A stretch of DNA of 64,000 nucleotides. It comes from Roseibium sp. Sym1 (lineage in GTDB: Bacteria > Pseudomonadota > Alphaproteobacteria > Rhizobiales > Stappiaceae). The position numbers and the translations under genes were made by a program. The stretch is from assembly GCF_027359675.1 (NCBI RefSeq), contig NZ_CP114786.1, forward strand, positions 4,686,501-4,750,500. The letters run 5' to 3'. The notes below the pieces were generated by a model. It saw only the letters and a program-made list of their open reading frames with translations. It made no database searches and had not been told where the DNA came from. Positions 28,462-37,762 of this stretch are shown piece after piece; position 1 is the first letter of the stretch; each line of letters starts with the position of its first letter.

Positions 28462-28562
28462 GTGTCCGTCTTGACAATCATCGGTTGGCTCATTCATCTG
28501 ATGCACGCTTCCTGCCGGGGAGGTGCAAACCGAGGCTCCGGACTGTTCATCGAAAGGCCGCC

Positions 28563-29216
28563 ATGTCCCTGCATGCCATCATTCGCAACCGCCAACGGGC
28601 TCTCTACAATGCCTGGGTACGGCAACCCATGATGCAGATGCAGGTCGAACACCCGGGGGTGCTCGGCAGACTGGTGTTTCTGGATAGCTACGACGACAGC
28701 ATCCAGGCGCGTCAACTCGGCCGCAGCAGCTTAACGAATGTGGCTCTGGTTCAGCGCCCGGGGAATCCGGACGAGAATGCCAGCGTGTGGGTGCGTGCCG
28801 GTTACAGCGGCTACAGGCAGGCCTGGGTCAATTTCATCGAGGAAGTCTACGGCACGAGAGTCTCCTCCAGCGATCTGGCCGGCTACAACATCGATCATCT
28901 CTTCAACAGGGCACGAAGCCCGGCGCAGGCCGGCTTCGTCCGCATCGAGGCCATCGACGGCGCCATCAACCAGGCATGGGGCCGGAATTTCGAACGGGCT
29001 GTCAGCGACACGAAATCCGGCGGCAACGACCGCCTCAGAAACACGATGAGCTGGGTGATCGCCGCCAAGCTTATGAACCAGCCACCTCCACGCGGTCCCA
29101 ACGATGTGCAGGGGATCGCGGATCTGGTGCGGTTCTTCAGCCGCAACGGTTTCAGCGCGGCCGAAGCGCAGCGGGGCGTGGATGGCATGTTCGAGCATGC
29201 CTACCGCTTCCGCTGA
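28563..29216 (+). CDS. Hypothetical protein (217 aa)
   Basis: The protein starts MSLHAIIRNRQRALYNAW. It has no signal peptide or membrane helix and is basic. A segment GYNIDHLFNRARS around residue 108 places His, Asn and Arg in a way loosely reminiscent of nuclease-like motifs, but I cannot assign a family. The C-terminal part (DLVRFFSRNGFSAAEAQRGVDG) looks like a compact helix pair. The coding frame is supported by codon periodicity and the convergent amine oxidase, whose stop lies only 3 bp away. Confidence 0.6.
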   Translation: MSLHAIIRNRQRALYNAWVRQPMMQMQVEHPGVLGRLVFLDSYDDSIQARQLGRSSLTNVALVQRPGNPDENASVWVRAGYSGYRQAWVNFIEEVYGTRVSSSDLAGYNIDHLFNRARSPAQAGFVRIEAIDGAINQAWGRNFERAVSDTKSGGNDRLRNTMSWVIAAKLMNQPPPRGPNDVQGIADLVRFFSRNGFSAAEAQRGVDGMFEHAYRFR

Positions 29217-30800: not shown

Positions 30801-30936
30801 TTCTTCTCAATTTCTTGTTTTACCATCCAGGGTCGATATTACGCCCGTATGTCGCCTGAAATCCCGAACCATAACGTGTCCGGATGCCGTGAAATCGCGT
30901 CCGCGATTGCCTTCCGGTGCATGGGTGAAGGATCAC

Positions 30937-30950
30937 ATGATCTGGATCAA
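30937..30950 (+). promoter_or_regulatory. FNR/CRP-family operator
   Basis: ATGAT-CTGG-ATCAA matches the FNR consensus TTGAT-N4-ATCAA at 9 of 10 half-site bases. Its centre (30943.5) lies about 30 bp before a TGTAAT -10 hexamer, the class II activation geometry. The first gene of the radical SAM operon starts at 31112. Confidence 0.65.
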
Positions 30951-30970
30951 TGTGACGGTGAAGCAAAAAT

Positions 30971-30983
30971 TGTAATTCTTCTC
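30971..30983 (+). promoter_or_regulatory. Predicted -10 element and start region of the radical SAM operon
   Basis: TGTAAT (30971-30976) resembles TATAAT, and transcription would begin near 30983. No good -35 is present where the FNR-type box sits, as expected for an activator-dependent promoter. Confidence 0.5.
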
Positions 30984-31111
30984 AAGACAACCCAGCGATC
31001 CGCAAGGAAATACATAGTGTACTCTGCGGGTTAGCTGCTGCTTACGCAACGGTATCGCCTCGTTGTAAGGCAGCCTGCGTCTGCGTCAGGTCCGGGAGGA
31101 AGCGCATAGCC

Positions 31112-31513
31112 ATGTCCGAAGGTGTCAACACGTTCTGGGGCCTGATTCAGAGCACGCTGACGGCCATGAGCGAGGTCTATGTCAAGATCAAGGCCGGCAC
31201 CGCAAGCCAAGCCGAGAAGAACGGCTTTCTCGCCCAAGGCAATGCCCTGGGCCTGCATTCCGGACAACTGTTCGAGGAACTCAAGAAACTCGAGGACGCC
31301 GCCGAGGCCGGTGCCATGAGCCGGATCCATCACGACCTTGCCGCCTTGCTGGCCGGCGACTTGAAAAACGCCCGGGCCCTGTGCCGCGATCTCGTTCGTC
31401 AACTCCTGCGCATCGCCAATTTCCACGTGCTTCATGACGACGGCGATCAGGCCCTCTGGAAGCCGGTTCAGAAAAAGTATCAGAAGATGTTGGACGCATT
31501 ACCAACCGAGTAG
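31112..31513 (+). CDS. Helical protein of unknown family, first gene of radical SAM peptide operon (133 aa)
   Basis: The start has an SD (GGGAGGA, 11-nt spacing). The protein is predicted all-helical, with amphipathic stretches from residues 5-30, 35-65 and 70-105. It has no signal peptide, one Cys, and a His/Asp cluster at FHVLHDDGDQ. I do not recognise a family. It lies 24 bp upstream of the NAGPA gene and is the leading gene of a five-gene unit ending in the repeat peptide. A partner, carrier or adaptor role is inference only. Curiously it contains EVYVKIK, a chance echo of the YVK repeat in the peptide. Confidence 0.7.
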   Translation: MSEGVNTFWGLIQSTLTAMSEVYVKIKAGTASQAEKNGFLAQGNALGLHSGQLFEELKKLEDAAEAGAMSRIHHDLAALLAGDLKNARALCRDLVRQLLRIANFHVLHDDGDQALWKPVQKKYQKMLDALPTE

Positions 31514-31537
31514 GGCGGTCGGGGTAGAGGAGGGACC

Positions 31538-32284
31538 ATGCTCACACATTCGCACATCGCCGGAAGTGGACATGAAATCTGGATCCAGCCCGCAGGCCCT
31601 TCCGGCGCCGGTTTGACATTCGACGTGCATATCGGTGGTGGCGGCATCGCAAGCATCGCAAGCCTGGCGCATCGGAAGGCGACAAAAGGCCGGAGTTTCG
31701 TCATCAACGGGACGTTTTTCTTCAATGGCTCGATCCTTGGCGACATGCTCCGCCGTGACGGGCACTTCCGGAAAACAGCCGAGCCGAAGGCAAAGAAGCG
31801 ATTCGGGTTCGCGATCACCACATTCGGTCAGCCGACGGTCTATGAGCGCGAACCGCTCCCGGACGACCCGACGCAGCTGGAGGCGGTCTATACGGCGATG
31901 TACTCCATGGCCATGGGCGGCCTTGGCCGGCTCCTGGAAGGTGGCGTCAACAAGGCCGCACGATCGATCCTCAAGGACCCGGCGGGCCAGTATTTCCAGG
32001 ATGACGCCATCCGTGAGGCCCCCCGGTCGGCGCTTGGCATAGACAATCGCGGCAGGGTGATGGTGTTTGTCGCGACACCCGGACCTGATCCGGCGAACTA
32101 CGGCATGACGCCGGACGAGATGGCCGTGTTCATGAAAGCGCGCGGTGTGACCGATGCCGTTTTCCTGGACGGCGGCCGGTCAACCTCGCTCGCCGTCAAC
32201 GGCAGGGTGCTCATGACGGGCGGCAACTATGCCGCCGGCGGGAATGACAGCACGATCCCTTGCTGGGTGATCGGCTATGAATAG
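31538..32284 (+). CDS. Phosphodiester glycosidase (NAGPA) domain protein, no signal peptide
   Basis: The 248-residue protein matches the NAGPA/DUF2233 family, whose best-known member removes GlcNAc from a GlcNAc-phosphodiester. Motifs include the core FVINGTFFFNG, RSALGID, and the late block VFLDGGRSTSLAVNG, close to the usual LDGGGSTT. Most relatives are exported, but the N-terminus (MLTHSHIAGSGHE) is not a signal peptide, so this one appears cytoplasmic. It overlaps the next gene by 8 bp and has an SD (GGAGGGACC) upstream. Its role in the peptide operon is unknown; it could edit a sugar-phosphate on the peptide or cleave a leader-linked group. Confidence 0.8.
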   Translation: MLTHSHIAGSGHEIWIQPAGPSGAGLTFDVHIGGGGIASIASLAHRKATKGRSFVINGTFFFNGSILGDMLRRDGHFRKTAEPKAKKRFGFAITTFGQPTVYEREPLPDDPTQLEAVYTAMYSMAMGGLGRLLEGGVNKAARSILKDPAGQYFQDDAIREAPRSALGIDNRGRVMVFVATPGPDPANYGMTPDEMAVFMKARGVTDAVFLDGGRSTSLAVNGRVLMTGGNYAAGGNDSTIPCWVIGYE

Positions 32285-34007
32285 TCATGTCAAAGCAAGT
32301 GAGTTCACAGCCGACGCTCATGACGCTTGGCTCGACCGGAACCGTCACGCGCTCAAGTTCGTATCGAGCGCCAAGGTTATTCCGGACCGGGCTTCCGATC
32401 GGTTTGCCGTGTTCAACGACTATGAAGCCCCGGTTGACCACTACATGGTGTTCGATGGCGCAGATGCGCCCGTCCTTGCCCTGAAAGAGGGCTGCACCTA
32501 TGACACGCTGTCAGGCACGCTCGGGCGCGAGAAGGCGGATGCCTATCTGAAGACGTTCCAGGAGCAGGGTCTCTTCGCGCATGCCGAGCCTCCCGCAGAG
32601 CGCATCGAGCGCGTCCGCAGCGCCTACAACGCCCAGGGACGGGGCGCGGGGCTGAGGGACGATCTCGAAGCCAAGCTCGTCCGCTACAAGGCCGACGGCA
32701 GCACGCCGTGGTCGGCGTTTTCCCCGCATCCGGAAGCACCGGCTGTCGAGGTATCGCTTCTGATAACCGATGCCTGCAATCTGCGCTGCCGTTATTGCCA
32801 CGTGATGGACAGCGACAATGTCCTGCCGGCGGTCCCCAAGACCGGTGTCATGTCCGAGGAGGTCCTGCAGGATTTTGCCCGGACCTTCATCGGCTTCATC
32901 AAGCAAAGATGGGGGACCGGTTGCCTGAATGTCGTTTTCTTCGGCGGCCAGCCGTCCTTGAGAGGCAAGGTCCGTGCCTTCCTGTTCGAGGCAGCGGATT
33001 ATCTGGCTTCCCAGGCGGCGCGCGAGAAGGTCTTCATCCGCTTCTCCATCGACGACAACGGGACCCAGATCGACGATGAGCTGATAGCCTTCTTCACAAA
33101 ATACGATTTCGACGTTTCCCTGTCGTTCGATCCCCCAGTCGCGGCAAACGACTGGCAGCGGCCGTTTCCGGGCAAGGACCCGAAGAGCGGAGCCACGATC
33201 GAGGAAGGCCTGCGCCGCCTCGTTCAGAGTGACGTCCGGGTCGGGCTGCGCGCGACGGTGAGCGACCGAAACCAGGATCATGTCTACGAATCGGTCGTAA
33301 AATATTCCGGCTGGGGCCTAAGGTCCGCGTCCTTCATTCCGATGCAGGATGTCGCCCACGGCCGGACCGTCGCAGGGGTTCGTGCTCCGGACCCCGCAGT
33401 GCTGTCGCAACAATACACGAGAGCGTTCGAGCACGTGCTCGACCTCTTCGAGAAGACCGGCGCCGTTTTCGATTTCGGGCCGGTGACCTCCATTCTCCAT
33501 CGCATCGCCAACGGGGGGGAAATCCAGACCTGTGGCATGGGAGACGTCTATTTCGCGGTCGACCCGAGGGGCGGTGCCTATTCCTGCCACCGGGACCTGA
33601 CGTCCGACTTTTTCATAGGGGACGTGAGCGAGCCGGCGTGTGTCGACGCACTGTTGCACCCGCCGCTGAAGACGACCTGCCCGCAAGTGACCAGCTTCTA
33701 CGACCCCTCCCTGTTCTGCAGCAACACGGGTTGCTGCAACTGCGAGCCGGGGACGCCTGCAGCCTGCCGGGATTGTCCGATCCTGGCCTTTTGCGGCGGG
33801 TCCTGCCCGGCAGCAAGCTTTGCGCATTACGGCTGCACAAATATCGGACTGTCGGTGCTGGTCGATTCCGACCCGGCCCGCGGAGACGAAAGGTGCCGCT
33901 GGAGCAAGGACTTCGTTTCGGGGCTCTTCTGGCGGTTCATCGACGAAAAACCGGGCTCGGTCTTTCAACGCTATCTCGCGGCGCTGTTCGGACAGGTGAT
34001 GCCATGA
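32277..34007 (+). CDS. Radical SAM/SPASM peptide maturase with N-terminal leader-recognition-like domain
   Basis: This 576-residue protein would install radical-generated crosslinks or other bonds on a peptide. Residues 25-105 look like a PqqD/RRE-type winged helix that binds peptide leaders (FAVFNDYEAPVDHYMVFDG, then TLGREKADAYLKTFQEQGLF). The radical SAM core has CNLRCRYC with Cys167, 171 and 174 for the 4Fe-4S cluster, and GGQPS (223-227) where GGEP is usual. A long Cys-rich SPASM region carries Cys419, 437, 468, 481, 486, 487, 489, 497, 500, 506, 510 and 520, enough for two auxiliary clusters. It overlaps its neighbours at both ends (8 bp and ATGA), indicating translational coupling. Confidence 0.9.
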   Translation: MNSHVKASEFTADAHDAWLDRNRHALKFVSSAKVIPDRASDRFAVFNDYEAPVDHYMVFDGADAPVLALKEGCTYDTLSGTLGREKADAYLKTFQEQGLFAHAEPPAERIERVRSAYNAQGRGAGLRDDLEAKLVRYKADGSTPWSAFSPHPEAPAVEVSLLITDACNLRCRYCHVMDSDNVLPAVPKTGVMSEEVLQDFARTFIGFIKQRWGTGCLNVVFFGGQPSLRGKVRAFLFEAADYLASQAAREKVFIRFSIDDNGTQIDDELIAFFTKYDFDVSLSFDPPVAANDWQRPFPGKDPKSGATIEEGLRRLVQSDVRVGLRATVSDRNQDHVYESVVKYSGWGLRSASFIPMQDVAHGRTVAGVRAPDPAVLSQQYTRAFEHVLDLFEKTGAVFDFGPVTSILHRIANGGEIQTCGMGDVYFAVDPRGGAYSCHRDLTSDFFIGDVSEPACVDALLHPPLKTTCPQVTSFYDPSLFCSNTGCCNCEPGTPAACRDCPILAFCGGSCPAASFAHYGCTNIGLSVLVDSDPARGDERCRWSKDFVSGLFWRFIDEKPGSVFQRYLAALFGQVMP

Positions 34008-35020
34008 ATATTCTTTTGGTCGACACGTGCAATCTCGCCTGTTCCTATTGCTTTCTGCAGGGAAGCCTGAACACCAGGTCCCGCCACGACGGGGATGCCG
34101 GCAAGATGTCGCTCGCCGAGTTCAGGCACGCGCTCGACTATGCCCGGGAGCTGATTGTTGCAGGCACCAAGGACAGCGCCAATCTGCTGGGTGGCGAGCC
34201 GACTCTTCACCCGCTCTTCAGGGAGTTCCTGAGCCTCGCCCTGTCACCGGCCTATTCACTGCCCGGCGGTAGCCCGTTGCCAGTGAACGTCTTCACCAAT
34301 GGCATCTTCTCCCCGGAGATGGCGGGGTTTCTCGGGTCTCAGCCTTGCGGTCTGATGATCAACATCAACCATCCGTCGTTCTACAAGGGGACGCAATGGT
34401 CTCGTCTGAACGACAATCTGCAGCGGATTTCGAGCCTTCGCGGGGAGCGCGCGTTCAGCGTCAGCCTGAACCTCTACCAACCGGAACAGGATGTTGCGTT
34501 CGTCTTCGAGGTCATGTCCCGCTACGACCTCGGGCAACTGCGCGTCGACTTTGCCAAGCCGAACGCGGCGCAGACCAACGAACATATCTCCTTTAAAGAC
34601 GTCTCCGCCATGCTTCCGCTTCTGGAGACGATTGCCGAGAGATGTACCGAGAACGGCATTGACCTGATAACCGACTGCTGTGTCCCGGTCTGCTCGGTCG
34701 ATGACGGACAGCTCAAGCGGCTGAAGGACAAGGGTATCTTCCTGTCGTTCACCTGCCCAGGCGCCATCGATGTGGGACCAGGGCTCGAGGTCTTTTTCTG
34801 TGGTCCATTGAAGGATGTCCGTTTCGGGCAGCTGACCGACTATCCCACCGGCGGAGACCTCGTCCGCAAGATGGATGACGTCATCGACCCGCTGCGCTGG
34901 GAGGTGCCGACATGCACCGCTTGCGAGACCTGCAAATGGCAAACGCTGAACATCTGTCAGGGTGGATGCCTGGCGTTCAAACAGAGATCAGAAGGTGACG
35001 GTCAGGAGGTGCTGCAATGA
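34004..35020 (+). CDS. Second radical SAM/SPASM enzyme (338 aa)
   Basis: The radical SAM core starts almost at residue 1 (MNILLVDTCNLACSYCF; Cys9, 13, 16), so there is no leader-recognition domain. GGEPTLHP is intact. Around residues 250-275 lies FTCPGAIDVG and FFCGPL. The C-terminus carries CTACETC and ICQGGC, a twitch/SPASM-like auxiliary cluster site. It overlaps the upstream gene at ATGA and the downstream peptide at ATGA. Without its own recognition domain it may borrow the leader-binding region of the larger enzyme, or act on a second type of site. Confidence 0.88.
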   Translation: MNILLVDTCNLACSYCFLQGSLNTRSRHDGDAGKMSLAEFRHALDYARELIVAGTKDSANLLGGEPTLHPLFREFLSLALSPAYSLPGGSPLPVNVFTNGIFSPEMAGFLGSQPCGLMININHPSFYKGTQWSRLNDNLQRISSLRGERAFSVSLNLYQPEQDVAFVFEVMSRYDLGQLRVDFAKPNAAQTNEHISFKDVSAMLPLLETIAERCTENGIDLITDCCVPVCSVDDGQLKRLKDKGIFLSFTCPGAIDVGPGLEVFFCGPLKDVRFGQLTDYPTGGDLVRKMDDVIDPLRWEVPTCTACETCKWQTLNICQGGCLAFKQRSEGDGQEVLQ

Positions 35021-35199
35021 AGAAGAAATATACGCTTCAGGTCTATGGCAGGGAGCCGGATACCAAGTCAGAGAACGAGACGCGGGAAGGGCGTGCCCAA
35101 GAAAGTGCCCGTTCCGTGGGTGCGACCTGCTACGTGAAGAATCCCTGTTATGTAAAGAACCCCTGCTATGTAAAAGACCCCTGCTATGTGAAGAGCTGA
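35017..35199 (+). CDS. Predicted RiPP precursor peptide with four CYVK(N/D/S)P repeats (60 aa)
   Basis: The 60-residue peptide begins MKKKYTLQVYGREPD, with a polar, charged leader-like region to residue 37, then four tandem six-residue units: CYVKNP, CYVKNP, CYVKDP and CYVKS (Cys38, 44, 50, 56). A strong SD (AGGAGGT, 35004-35010) lies 6 nt upstream, and the ATG overlaps the stop of the second radical SAM gene. Each unit offers a Cys for thioether bonds and a Tyr-Val-Lys triad of the aromatic-X-X type used in radical-SAM cyclophanes (triceptides), but chemistry cannot be read from sequence. The N-terminal KKKY.....YG pattern is a possible recognition sequence. I know no named family with this repeat. 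Confidence 0.8.
   Translation: MKKKYTLQVYGREPDTKSENETREGRAQESARSVGATCYVKNPCYVKNPCYVKDPCYVKS
35128..35196 (+). repeat. Tandem 18-bp coding repeat (4 units)
   Basis: Units lie at 35128-35145, 35146-35163, 35164-35181 and 35182-35196 (last unit short). Codons vary between units (TGC/TGT, TAC/TAT, GTG/GTA, AAG/AAA) while the residues CYVK are constant, so the repeat is held at protein level. Confidence 0.95.
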
Positions 35200-35616
35200 A
35201 TTCGGCTTCGGTTTCCGGCATGGTTCATGCGCGGGCCGGTTGGGATGTCCCGGCTGCAGGGCATCAAAGGTCTTTGAAGGCGCTCTTTCGGAACACCGCG
35301 AACGCGTGATTGATGCGGACCGGCGGCCGAGTCGGGAGATCTTACTCTGGACGCAGGGATTGAGGTCTTGAAGAGCCTGGCCGACGATGCGAACGGTTTG
35401 CGGTGCTGTGCCTGTTCGCGGCAACGTTCGGGCTGAATGCCCTGGATCCGGACGCATGTTTCCCGCAGTCATTTCCGTCATGCCGCATTCCCTGGCAAGC
35501 CATATCCGCAGTGCGGTTTCGTTTTGGCTTCGAATGCTGTGTTTTCTTTTTCATACCATTCCCATAAACTTCTCCGGCTAAGTAAAAACCTGCAGCGTGG
35601 AGAGAAGATTAGCCAT
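35200..35616 (+). other. Intergenic stretch after the peptide gene, nothing identified
   Basis: About 417 bp with no convincing gene, terminator or repeat. Open frames here have no SD or recognisable residues. Any cleavage protease or exporter for the peptide is not encoded here. Confidence 0.5.
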
Positions 35617-37550: not shown

Positions 37551-37627
37551 GCGGGTGTAGCTCAGTTGGTTAGAGTGCCGGCCTGTCACGCCGGAGGTCG
37601 CGGGTTCGAGCCCCGTCACTCGCGCCA
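37551..37627 (+). tRNA. tRNA-Asp (GUC), copy 1
   Basis: The acceptor GCGGGTG pairs with CACTCGC, and GCCA is encoded at the 3' end. The anticodon loop CTGTCAC in CCGGC/GCCGG gives GUC. The length is 77 nt with canonical D and T arms. Confidence 0.97.
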
Positions 37628-37685
37628 CTTCCCTTACAAGGTACAAGAGTACTGAAGCGGGAAGGGCGCAATATACCGTGAATGT

Positions 37686-37762
37686 GCGGGTGTAGCTCAG
37701 TTGGTTAGAGTGCCGGCCTGTCACGCCGGAGGTCGCGGGTTCGAGCCCCGTCACTCGCGCCA
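37686..37762 (+). tRNA. tRNA-Asp (GUC), copy 2
   Basis: This 77-nt gene is identical to the copy at 37551-37627 and follows 58 bp after it. Confidence 0.97.

What the first reader, a model, noticed from the sequence alone, without database searches (positions are those of the whole stretch)
31112..35199. Five-gene operon for an unrecognised radical-SAM-modified repeat peptide
Genes for a helical protein, a NAGPA-domain protein, two radical SAM/SPASM enzymes and a repeat peptide are spaced 24 bp, -8 bp, -4 bp and -4 bp apart, so they form one translationally coupled unit. Seen: SAM motifs (CNLRCRYC and CNLACSYC), many auxiliary Cys and the CYVK repeat. Known: peptide maturases with SPASM domains build crosslinks in RiPPs. 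Inferred: this is a RiPP class with no name I can give, with an unusual NAGPA partner and no protease or transporter in the operon.
Basis: partly seen in the sequence, partly recalled or inferred. Interest (0 to 1): 0.9.

Follow-up and report, generated by a model that had tools for sequence, protein, structure and literature searches.

The report
Five-gene cassette for CYVK-repeat peptide
A compact block of five genes, found whole at unrelated places in two bacteria of one order, appears to encode a small repeat peptide and two radical enzymes that probably staple it into rings, with an unusual sugar-phosphodiesterase-like partner; no named peptide family fits it, and its product can be tested directly.

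Summary
In detail: five packed genes (31112-35199) encode a helical protein, a NAGPA-domain protein, two radical SAM enzymes (rSAM-B, 576 aa; rSAM-C, 338 aa) and a 60-aa peptide ending in four CYVK units. The same five genes in the same order occur in Afifella marina, with seven CYVK units; every difference inside those units is synonymous. In both lineages the block is an insert of about 4.7 kb at unrelated sites; sister species have the site without it. So it is a self-contained RiPP-type module without a dedicated transporter or protease. rSAM-B scores best against PapB, a thioether-forming maturase (112.7 bits, cut-off 340); its fold resembles CteB and anSME. The repeat C-Y-V-K-D/N has PapB's Cys-X3-Asp spacing in 6 of 11 units and Asn in 3 of 11. 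Most likely rSAM-B makes a Cys-Asp/Asn thioether per unit and rSAM-C adds a second change, perhaps a Tyr-X-Lys link. No tested named class fits. The chemistry and the role of the NAGPA protein are inferred; gene neighbourhoods of nine distant rSAM-B relatives could not be read.

The parts
30808..35516 (.). approximate extent of the inserted block (junctions: similarity to congeners ends at 30802-30807 and resumes at 35517-35528 in the four closest)
   Evidence: blastn against congeneric loci L019-L029; tRNA-Val directly upstream of the Na/Pi gene in 10 of 11 of them
31112..31513 (+). helical protein, 133 aa; predicted five-helix bundle, no family; 42% identical over 118 residues to the Afifella protein
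31538..32284 (+). NAGPA-domain (phosphodiester glycosidase, PF09992) protein, 248 aa, no hydrophobic N-terminus by eye; 62% identical to the Afifella protein; the only PF09992 match in this genome
32277..34007 (+). rSAM-B, 576 aa: recognition-type N-terminal domain, radical SAM core, Cys-rich SPASM-like C-terminal part
32364..32570 (+). rSAM-B residues 30-98: three strands then three helices, the order expected of an RRE (precursor recognition) domain; Pfam PqqD does not match here
   Evidence: model; aligned to CteB from residue 30 on; no PqqD match
32775..32798 (+). rSAM-B CX3CX2C motif (CNLRCRYC)
33531..33896 (+). rSAM-B residues 419-540 with 11 Cys conserved in 12 of 12 members, 3 to 4 more than a SPASM domain needs
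   Evidence: the SPASM ligand count is recalled
34004..35020 (+). rSAM-C, 338 aa: starts almost at the SAM motif, no N-terminal recognition domain
34028..34051 (+). rSAM-C CX3CX2C motif (CNLACSYC)
34676..34969 (+). rSAM-C residues 225-322 with 8 conserved Cys (7 in 20 of 20, one in 19 of 20), enough for two auxiliary clusters
35017..35127 (+). precursor peptide, leader part (residues 1-37); MKKxYTLxxYGR shared with Afifella
35128..35196 (+). precursor peptide, core part: CYVKNP CYVKNP CYVKDP CYVKS

Best explanation
A self-contained, horizontally moving RiPP (ribosomally made, enzyme-modified peptide) module. Shown by sequence: five genes always together in the two loci read, a peptide with a conserved leader start and a varying number of CYVK units under selection for its residues, two radical SAM enzymes, and module ends fixed by empty sites. 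Inferred: the leader (MKKxYTLxxYGR) binds the N-terminal recognition domain of rSAM-B; rSAM-B then joins each Cys sulfur to a side-chain carbon of the Asp or Asn four residues on (C-Y-V-K-D/N), as PapB does for Cys-X3-Asp, giving up to three rings here and six in Afifella, the last unit (S or G in place of D/N) staying open. rSAM-C, which has no recognition domain of its own, makes a second change on the same unit, possibly a Tyr-X-Lys ring; the helical protein serves as scaffold or chaperone; the NAGPA protein is a tailoring or release hydrolase acting in the cytoplasm. Export and leader removal, if any, rely on host enzymes.
For: Same five genes in Afifella marina with 58-63% identical SAM enzymes; repeat number 4 against 7 and only synonymous differences within CYVK. 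Inserts with empty sites: 10 of 11 congeneric loci have tRNA-Val next to the Na/Pi gene; in Afifella, bases 6215-10969 of L008 are missing from 4 of 4 sister genomes, exactly so in L051 and L052; no similarity between the two copies outside the block beyond chance-level pieces. PapB is the best of 55 NCBIfam matches of rSAM-B, 112.7 bits against 87.3 for the next, and PapB, nif11, SCIFF and QhpD type models are matched by 12 of 12 family members. Foldseek's best solved structure is the thioether maturase CteB, E 5e-13. C-X3-D in 6 of 11 units, C-X3-N in 3 of 11. PapB joins Cys to Asp or Glu in CX3D/E units, and a streptococcal enzyme joins Cys to Asn (passages in PMC9413430, and PMC11002830).
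Confidence: 0.5

Rival explanations
1. The Y-V-K part, not the Cys, is the main target: one or both enzymes make three-residue cyclophanes (Tyr ring carbon to Lys beta carbon), and Cys serves another purpose such as metal binding or surface attachment.
For: YVK is invariant in 11 of 11 units while the D/N position varies. YhhB-type cyclophane models match 12 of 12 rSAM-B members; YhhB links Tyr to Arg two residues on (passage in PMC11002830).
Against: YhhB scores 65.2 bits for rSAM-B against 112.7 for PapB. Cys is as invariant as Tyr, and the last unit lacks only the D/N, which fits a thioether acceptor that is spent or absent there.
Confidence: 0.2
2. Sactipeptide-type chemistry: Cys sulfur joined to alpha carbons (of Lys, Asn, Asp or Pro/Thr).
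For: Both enzymes are radical SAM with auxiliary cluster Cys, and Cys-rich peptides with two radical SAM enzymes occur among sactipeptides (titles and abstract starts).
Against: The best NCBIfam matches of rSAM-B are models of non-alpha-carbon thioether formers, PapB and SCIFF. Sactipeptide maturase models are not among the 25 rows shown.
Confidence: 0.12
3. The NAGPA protein and the helical protein are the effectors, or an immunity or sugar-processing part, and the modified peptide is their regulator or cofactor rather than a secreted product.
For: No transporter or protease in the module in either lineage. The NAGPA protein is the most conserved non-SAM member, 62%.
Against: No known case found: paper searches for radical SAM with 'phosphodiester glycosidase', NAGPA and DUF2233 gave nothing on the subject.
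Confidence: 0.15

Closest known systems
PapA/PapB (freyrasin), ranthipeptides; NCBIfam NF047865
   Same: Several Cys-X3-Asp units in one small peptide with a leader; RRE plus radical SAM plus SPASM-type maturase; best family match of rSAM-B
   Different: 112.7 bits against a cut-off of 340; Asn or nothing in place of Asp in 5 of 11 units; strict six-residue repeat with invariant Tyr-Val-Lys; second SAM enzyme, NAGPA and helical partners
SCIFF / CteB (thermocellin), TIGR03974
   Same: Thioether-forming maturase; best Foldseek match, aligned from the recognition domain on
   Different: 82.9 bits against 425; no six-Cys-in-45 peptide (recalled definition)
Triceptides (YhhB, XyeB, FxsB, GrrM/OscB families)
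   Same: Aromatic-X-basic motif Y-V-K resembles YhhB's Tyr-X-Arg (PMC11002830)
   Different: YhhB 65.2 bits against 445; Cys and D/N are equally part of the repeat
Cys-every-fifth system (CefB, NF038107)
   Same: Tandem repeat peptide with one Cys per short unit and a SPASM maturase (name only; no paper found)
   Different: 40.3 bits against 600; period here is six
His-Xaa-Ser (HxsABCD) system
   Same: Two radical SAM enzymes and a repeat peptide
   Different: HxsB 55.1 bits against 370; HxsC not among the 25 rows shown for rSAM-C; no HxsD-like match for the small proteins; repeat is not H-X-S

Membership tests
PapB-type ranthipeptide | maturase above the curated cut-off of NF047865 (340 bits) | tested here: not met
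   rSAM-B 112.7 bits, rSAM-C 37.3 bits
PapB-type ranthipeptide | Cys-X3-Asp/Glu units in the peptide | tested here: inconclusive
   Asp in 6 of 11 units, Asn in 3 of 11, Ser or Gly in 2 of 11 over the two peptides
PapB-type ranthipeptide | Cys sulfur bound to a non-alpha carbon | not testable with these tools
   needs mass spectrometry and NMR
SCIFF system | maturase above the cut-off of TIGR03974 (425 bits) | tested here: not met
   82.9 bits
Triceptide, YhhB type | maturase above the cut-off of NF041707 (445 bits) | tested here: not met
   65.2 bits
Triceptide, any | C-C bond between aromatic residue i and residue i+2 | not testable with these tools
   Y-V-K motif present in 11 of 11 units, bond not observable
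HxsABCD | HxsB above the cut-off of TIGR03978 (370 bits) | tested here: not met
   55.1 bits
HxsABCD | HxsC partner | tested here: inconclusive
   TIGR03977 not among the 25 of 30 rows shown for rSAM-C; the five unshown rank below E 0.016
CXXX-repeat system | a CXXX-system maturase or partner model matched | tested here: inconclusive
   no row bears that name among those shown for the five proteins (25 of 55 and 25 of 30 shown for the SAM enzymes); the period here is six, not four
Cys-every-fifth (CefB) | maturase above the cut-off of NF038107 (600 bits) | tested here: not met
   40.3 bits
NAGPA / phosphodiester glycosidase (PF09992) | domain above the gathering score (25 bits) | tested here: met
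   66.7 bits, residues 51-226
NAGPA / phosphodiester glycosidase (PF09992) | hydrolysis of a sugar phosphodiester | not testable with these tools
   activity not testable; catalytic residues were not mapped
Radical SAM superfamily (PF04055) | domain above the gathering score and CX3CX2C motif, both enzymes | tested here: met
   39.5 and 33.4 bits against 29.5; motif in 12 of 12 and 20 of 20 aligned sequences

The most novel reading that the evidence does not exclude
Each six-residue unit becomes a doubly bridged cage: rSAM-B ties Cys to Asp/Asn (i to i+4) while rSAM-C ties Tyr to Lys (i+1 to i+3) inside that ring, giving a rigid rod of stacked bicycles whose length is set by repeat number; and the NAGPA protein is a new kind of RiPP enzyme, a phosphodiester-glycosidase fold used on a peptide or on a sugar-phosphate group placed on it. 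The 11 conserved auxiliary Cys of rSAM-B would allow a third auxiliary cluster.
Probability: 0.12. Interest if true: 0.85.

Novelty: new variant of a known kind. Interest (0 to 1): 0.62.

Why it matters
It adds a RiPP module with a partner set (NAGPA plus a helical protein of no family) that the searches here did not find described, in a form that is easy to test: five genes, 4.1 kb, ends fixed by empty sites, and a strictly periodic peptide in which each unit is an internal repeat of the same experiment. If both enzymes act on one unit, it would be a natural route to short, length-tunable, multiply bridged peptides, and would give the large unnamed rSAM-C family a first substrate.

Tried and rejected
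Precursor profile A1 against the protein collection: 271 candidates, none with E up to 1; since the source peptide itself was not found either, this tells nothing about spread.

Spread of rSAM-B: strong matches in 2 of 397 genomes of the order, 1 of 398 of the phylum, 1 of 11 of Afifella's family; viral contigs, 51 pattern stretches and no relative; plasmids 124 and phages 22 records with matches below 60% identity, the best of the rows shown being generic maturases. Spread of rSAM-C: 6 of 201 relatives at E up to 0.001, of which only this genome and G191 (Afifella) match over the full length; a profile search of 398 phylum genomes gave 6 with matches, apart from this genome only to the N-terminal part.

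None of their contig lengths equals one among the 120 rSAM-C hits listed of 366 (compared by eye), so rSAM-C may not accompany them; left open, and it counts against a fixed five-gene set in those lineages.

Defence system: only viperin-type SAM core similarity, at most 32.3 bits; rejected. Promoters 0, terminators 3 against 4.2 expected in shuffles; no RNA family besides tRNAs. Composition does not mark the block as foreign: GC 0.588-0.624 for the four large genes against 0.611 for the window, GC3 0.755-0.766 against 0.76 for the Na/Pi gene; Afifella block 0.637 against 0.617 around it.

Papers seen: PMC9413430 and PMC11002830, passages; PMC4289311, one passage; all others only as search listings. 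Searches that gave no paper.

Full report
What is there. Five + strand genes, 31112-35199, spaced +24, -8, -4 and -4 bases, encode a 133-aa helical protein, a 248-aa NAGPA-domain protein (PF09992, 66.7 bits), rSAM-B (576 aa), rSAM-C (338 aa) and a 60-aa peptide, MKKKYTLQVYGR... ending CYVKNP-CYVKNP-CYVKDP-CYVKS. Both enzymes pass the Pfam radical SAM score (39.5 and 33.4 bits, cut-off 29.5).

The same module elsewhere. The scan of one genome per species gave one relative of rSAM-B, in Afifella marina DSM 2698 (63% in the best segment). Around it lie the same five genes in the same order: helical protein 42% identical over 118 residues, NAGPA protein 62%, rSAM-C 57-58% and a peptide with seven CYVK units. 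The NAGPA/rSAM-B and rSAM-B/rSAM-C overlaps are again 8 and 4 bases; the peptide gene overlaps the end of rSAM-C by 98 bases there, against 4 here, and the NAGPA start is uncertain. P0122 and P0002 carry the same longest contig length and source, so a third B+C pair on one metagenome contig is likely; I infer this and did not see the contig.

Selection on the repeat. Within the 11 CYVK units the two peptides differ at C, Y, V and K codons only by synonymous changes: at least four kinds here and four in Afifella. About one in six random changes in these codons would be synonymous, so eight of eight is unlikely by chance, with the reservation that tandem repeats can copy one another. The residues between units vary: D/N/S/G, and P or T.

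A mobile accessory module. In the window, similarity to congeners stops at 30802-30807, just after tRNA-Val, and resumes at 35517-35528 in the four closest loci. tRNA-Val stands next to the Na/Pi gene without the block in 10 of 11 congeneric loci fetched (in L023 about 0.9 kb apart; in L024 no tRNA-Val lies within the stretch held). In Afifella the block, L008 6215-10969, is missing from 4 of 4 sister genomes; in L051 and L052, whose flanks are 94-95% identical on one side and 86% on the other, 33 bases stand in its place. The two copies share the genes but no flanking DNA beyond short chance-level pieces. The five genes leave about 300 bases on either side inside the window's insert, so there is no integrase, transporter or protease in it. 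Composition is not foreign. rSAM-B is otherwise rare: 2 of 397 genomes of the order, 1 of 398 of the phylum, 1 of 11 of Afifella's family.

rSAM-B. In the protein collection it has 11 close relatives (506-799 bits, 42-64% identity; Afifella, Acetivibrio cellulolyticus, a Brocadiae MAG and others) and then a drop to 82 bits (only the 7998 candidates sharing most words were scored, and a twelfth hit is this genome's own). NCBIfam's best match is PapB (112.7 bits), followed by nif11 maturase, SCIFF maturase, sulfatase maturase and QhpD type models, all far below cut-off. Eleven models match 12 of 12 members, thioether and cyclophane formers among them. The predicted model (mean pLDDT 77.0) begins with three strands and three helices, the topology of an RRE domain; Foldseek ranks CteB first, VIA ranks anSME slightly above CteB. 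Beyond the SAM motif, 11 Cys are kept in 12 of 12 members, more than the 7-8 that I recall for SPASM domains; the model is poor exactly there.

rSAM-C. Three close relatives (45-58%), then a broad group at 24-32% (120 of 366 listed). It starts almost at the SAM motif and keeps eight auxiliary Cys. Ten members of the broad group, scanned against NCBIfam, reach no cut-off in the rows shown. Two plasmid-borne distant relatives, 25% identical over 96-97%, sit in peptide-modification-like surroundings: in Candidatus Thiodictyon next to a PqqD-domain radical SAM protein, an amidohydrolase, and genes annotated YcaO-like and TfuA-like; in Candidatus Chlorohelix between two other radical SAM genes and beside two proteins with Cys-rich tails. 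This supports, weakly, a role in modifying Cys-bearing peptides together with a recognition-domain partner.

How it most likely works. Leader bound by the N-terminal domain of rSAM-B; Cys sulfur to Asp/Asn carbon in each C-Y-V-K-D/N unit, n-1 rings for n units; a second modification by rSAM-C. Passages in PMC9413430 say that PapB links Cys to Asp or Glu in CX3D/E and tolerates other spacings; passages in PMC11002830 mention a Cys-Asn thioether in streptococcal peptides and a Tyr-Arg cyclophane by YhhB. That Asn is accepted by a PapB-like enzyme is my inference. The reverse pairing, D/N-X-C, would also give n-1 rings and is not excluded. The helical and NAGPA roles are guesses from position and fold; the NAGPA protein is the only PF09992 match in this genome, while Afifella has a second.

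Novelty. It works like a ranthipeptide or triceptide system but is a tested member of none: every maturase cut-off checked was missed. Paper searches combining radical SAM with NAGPA, DUF2233, phosphodiester glycosidase, CYVK and Afifella gave nothing on this module by their listings; subscription papers are not held. I file it as a new variant of a known kind.

Noticed in passing
L041 5995-12465 (Candidatus Chlorohelix plasmid, NZ_CP128402.1): A distant rSAM-C relative lies beside a WD40-repeat protein and a 422-aa protein that both end in Cys-rich tails (PAGAVCTCNCVAGT..., PAGAVCVCNCVAGT... with further CTC units), with two more radical SAM genes; looks like an undescribed tail-modification system.
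   Followed up: partly
L042 4576-10653 (Candidatus Thiodictyon plasmid, NZ_CP020371.1): PqqD-domain radical SAM protein, distant rSAM-C relative with a sub-threshold C-terminal PqqD match (22.4 bits, cut-off 23.4), amidohydrolase, YcaO-like and TfuA-like genes in one row.
   Followed up: partly
window 33531-33896: rSAM-B keeps 11 auxiliary Cys in 12 of 12 members, enough for a possible third auxiliary cluster; the model is too weak there to tell.
   Followed up: partly
L008 6384-6420: A piece of about 37-41 bases inside the left end of the Afifella insert resembles DNA of sister genomes beyond the insertion point (L051, L052, L054); perhaps a dispersed short repeat.
   Followed up: no
window 28485-29213: A 243-aa ORF next to the HU gene has no Pfam match at E up to 0.001.
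   Followed up: no
window 37551-37762: Two tRNA-Asp genes 58 bases apart directly follow the Na/Pi gene; the order tRNA-Val, Na/Pi, tRNA-Asp, tRNA-Asp is kept in 10 of 11 congeneric loci fetched.
   Followed up: partly
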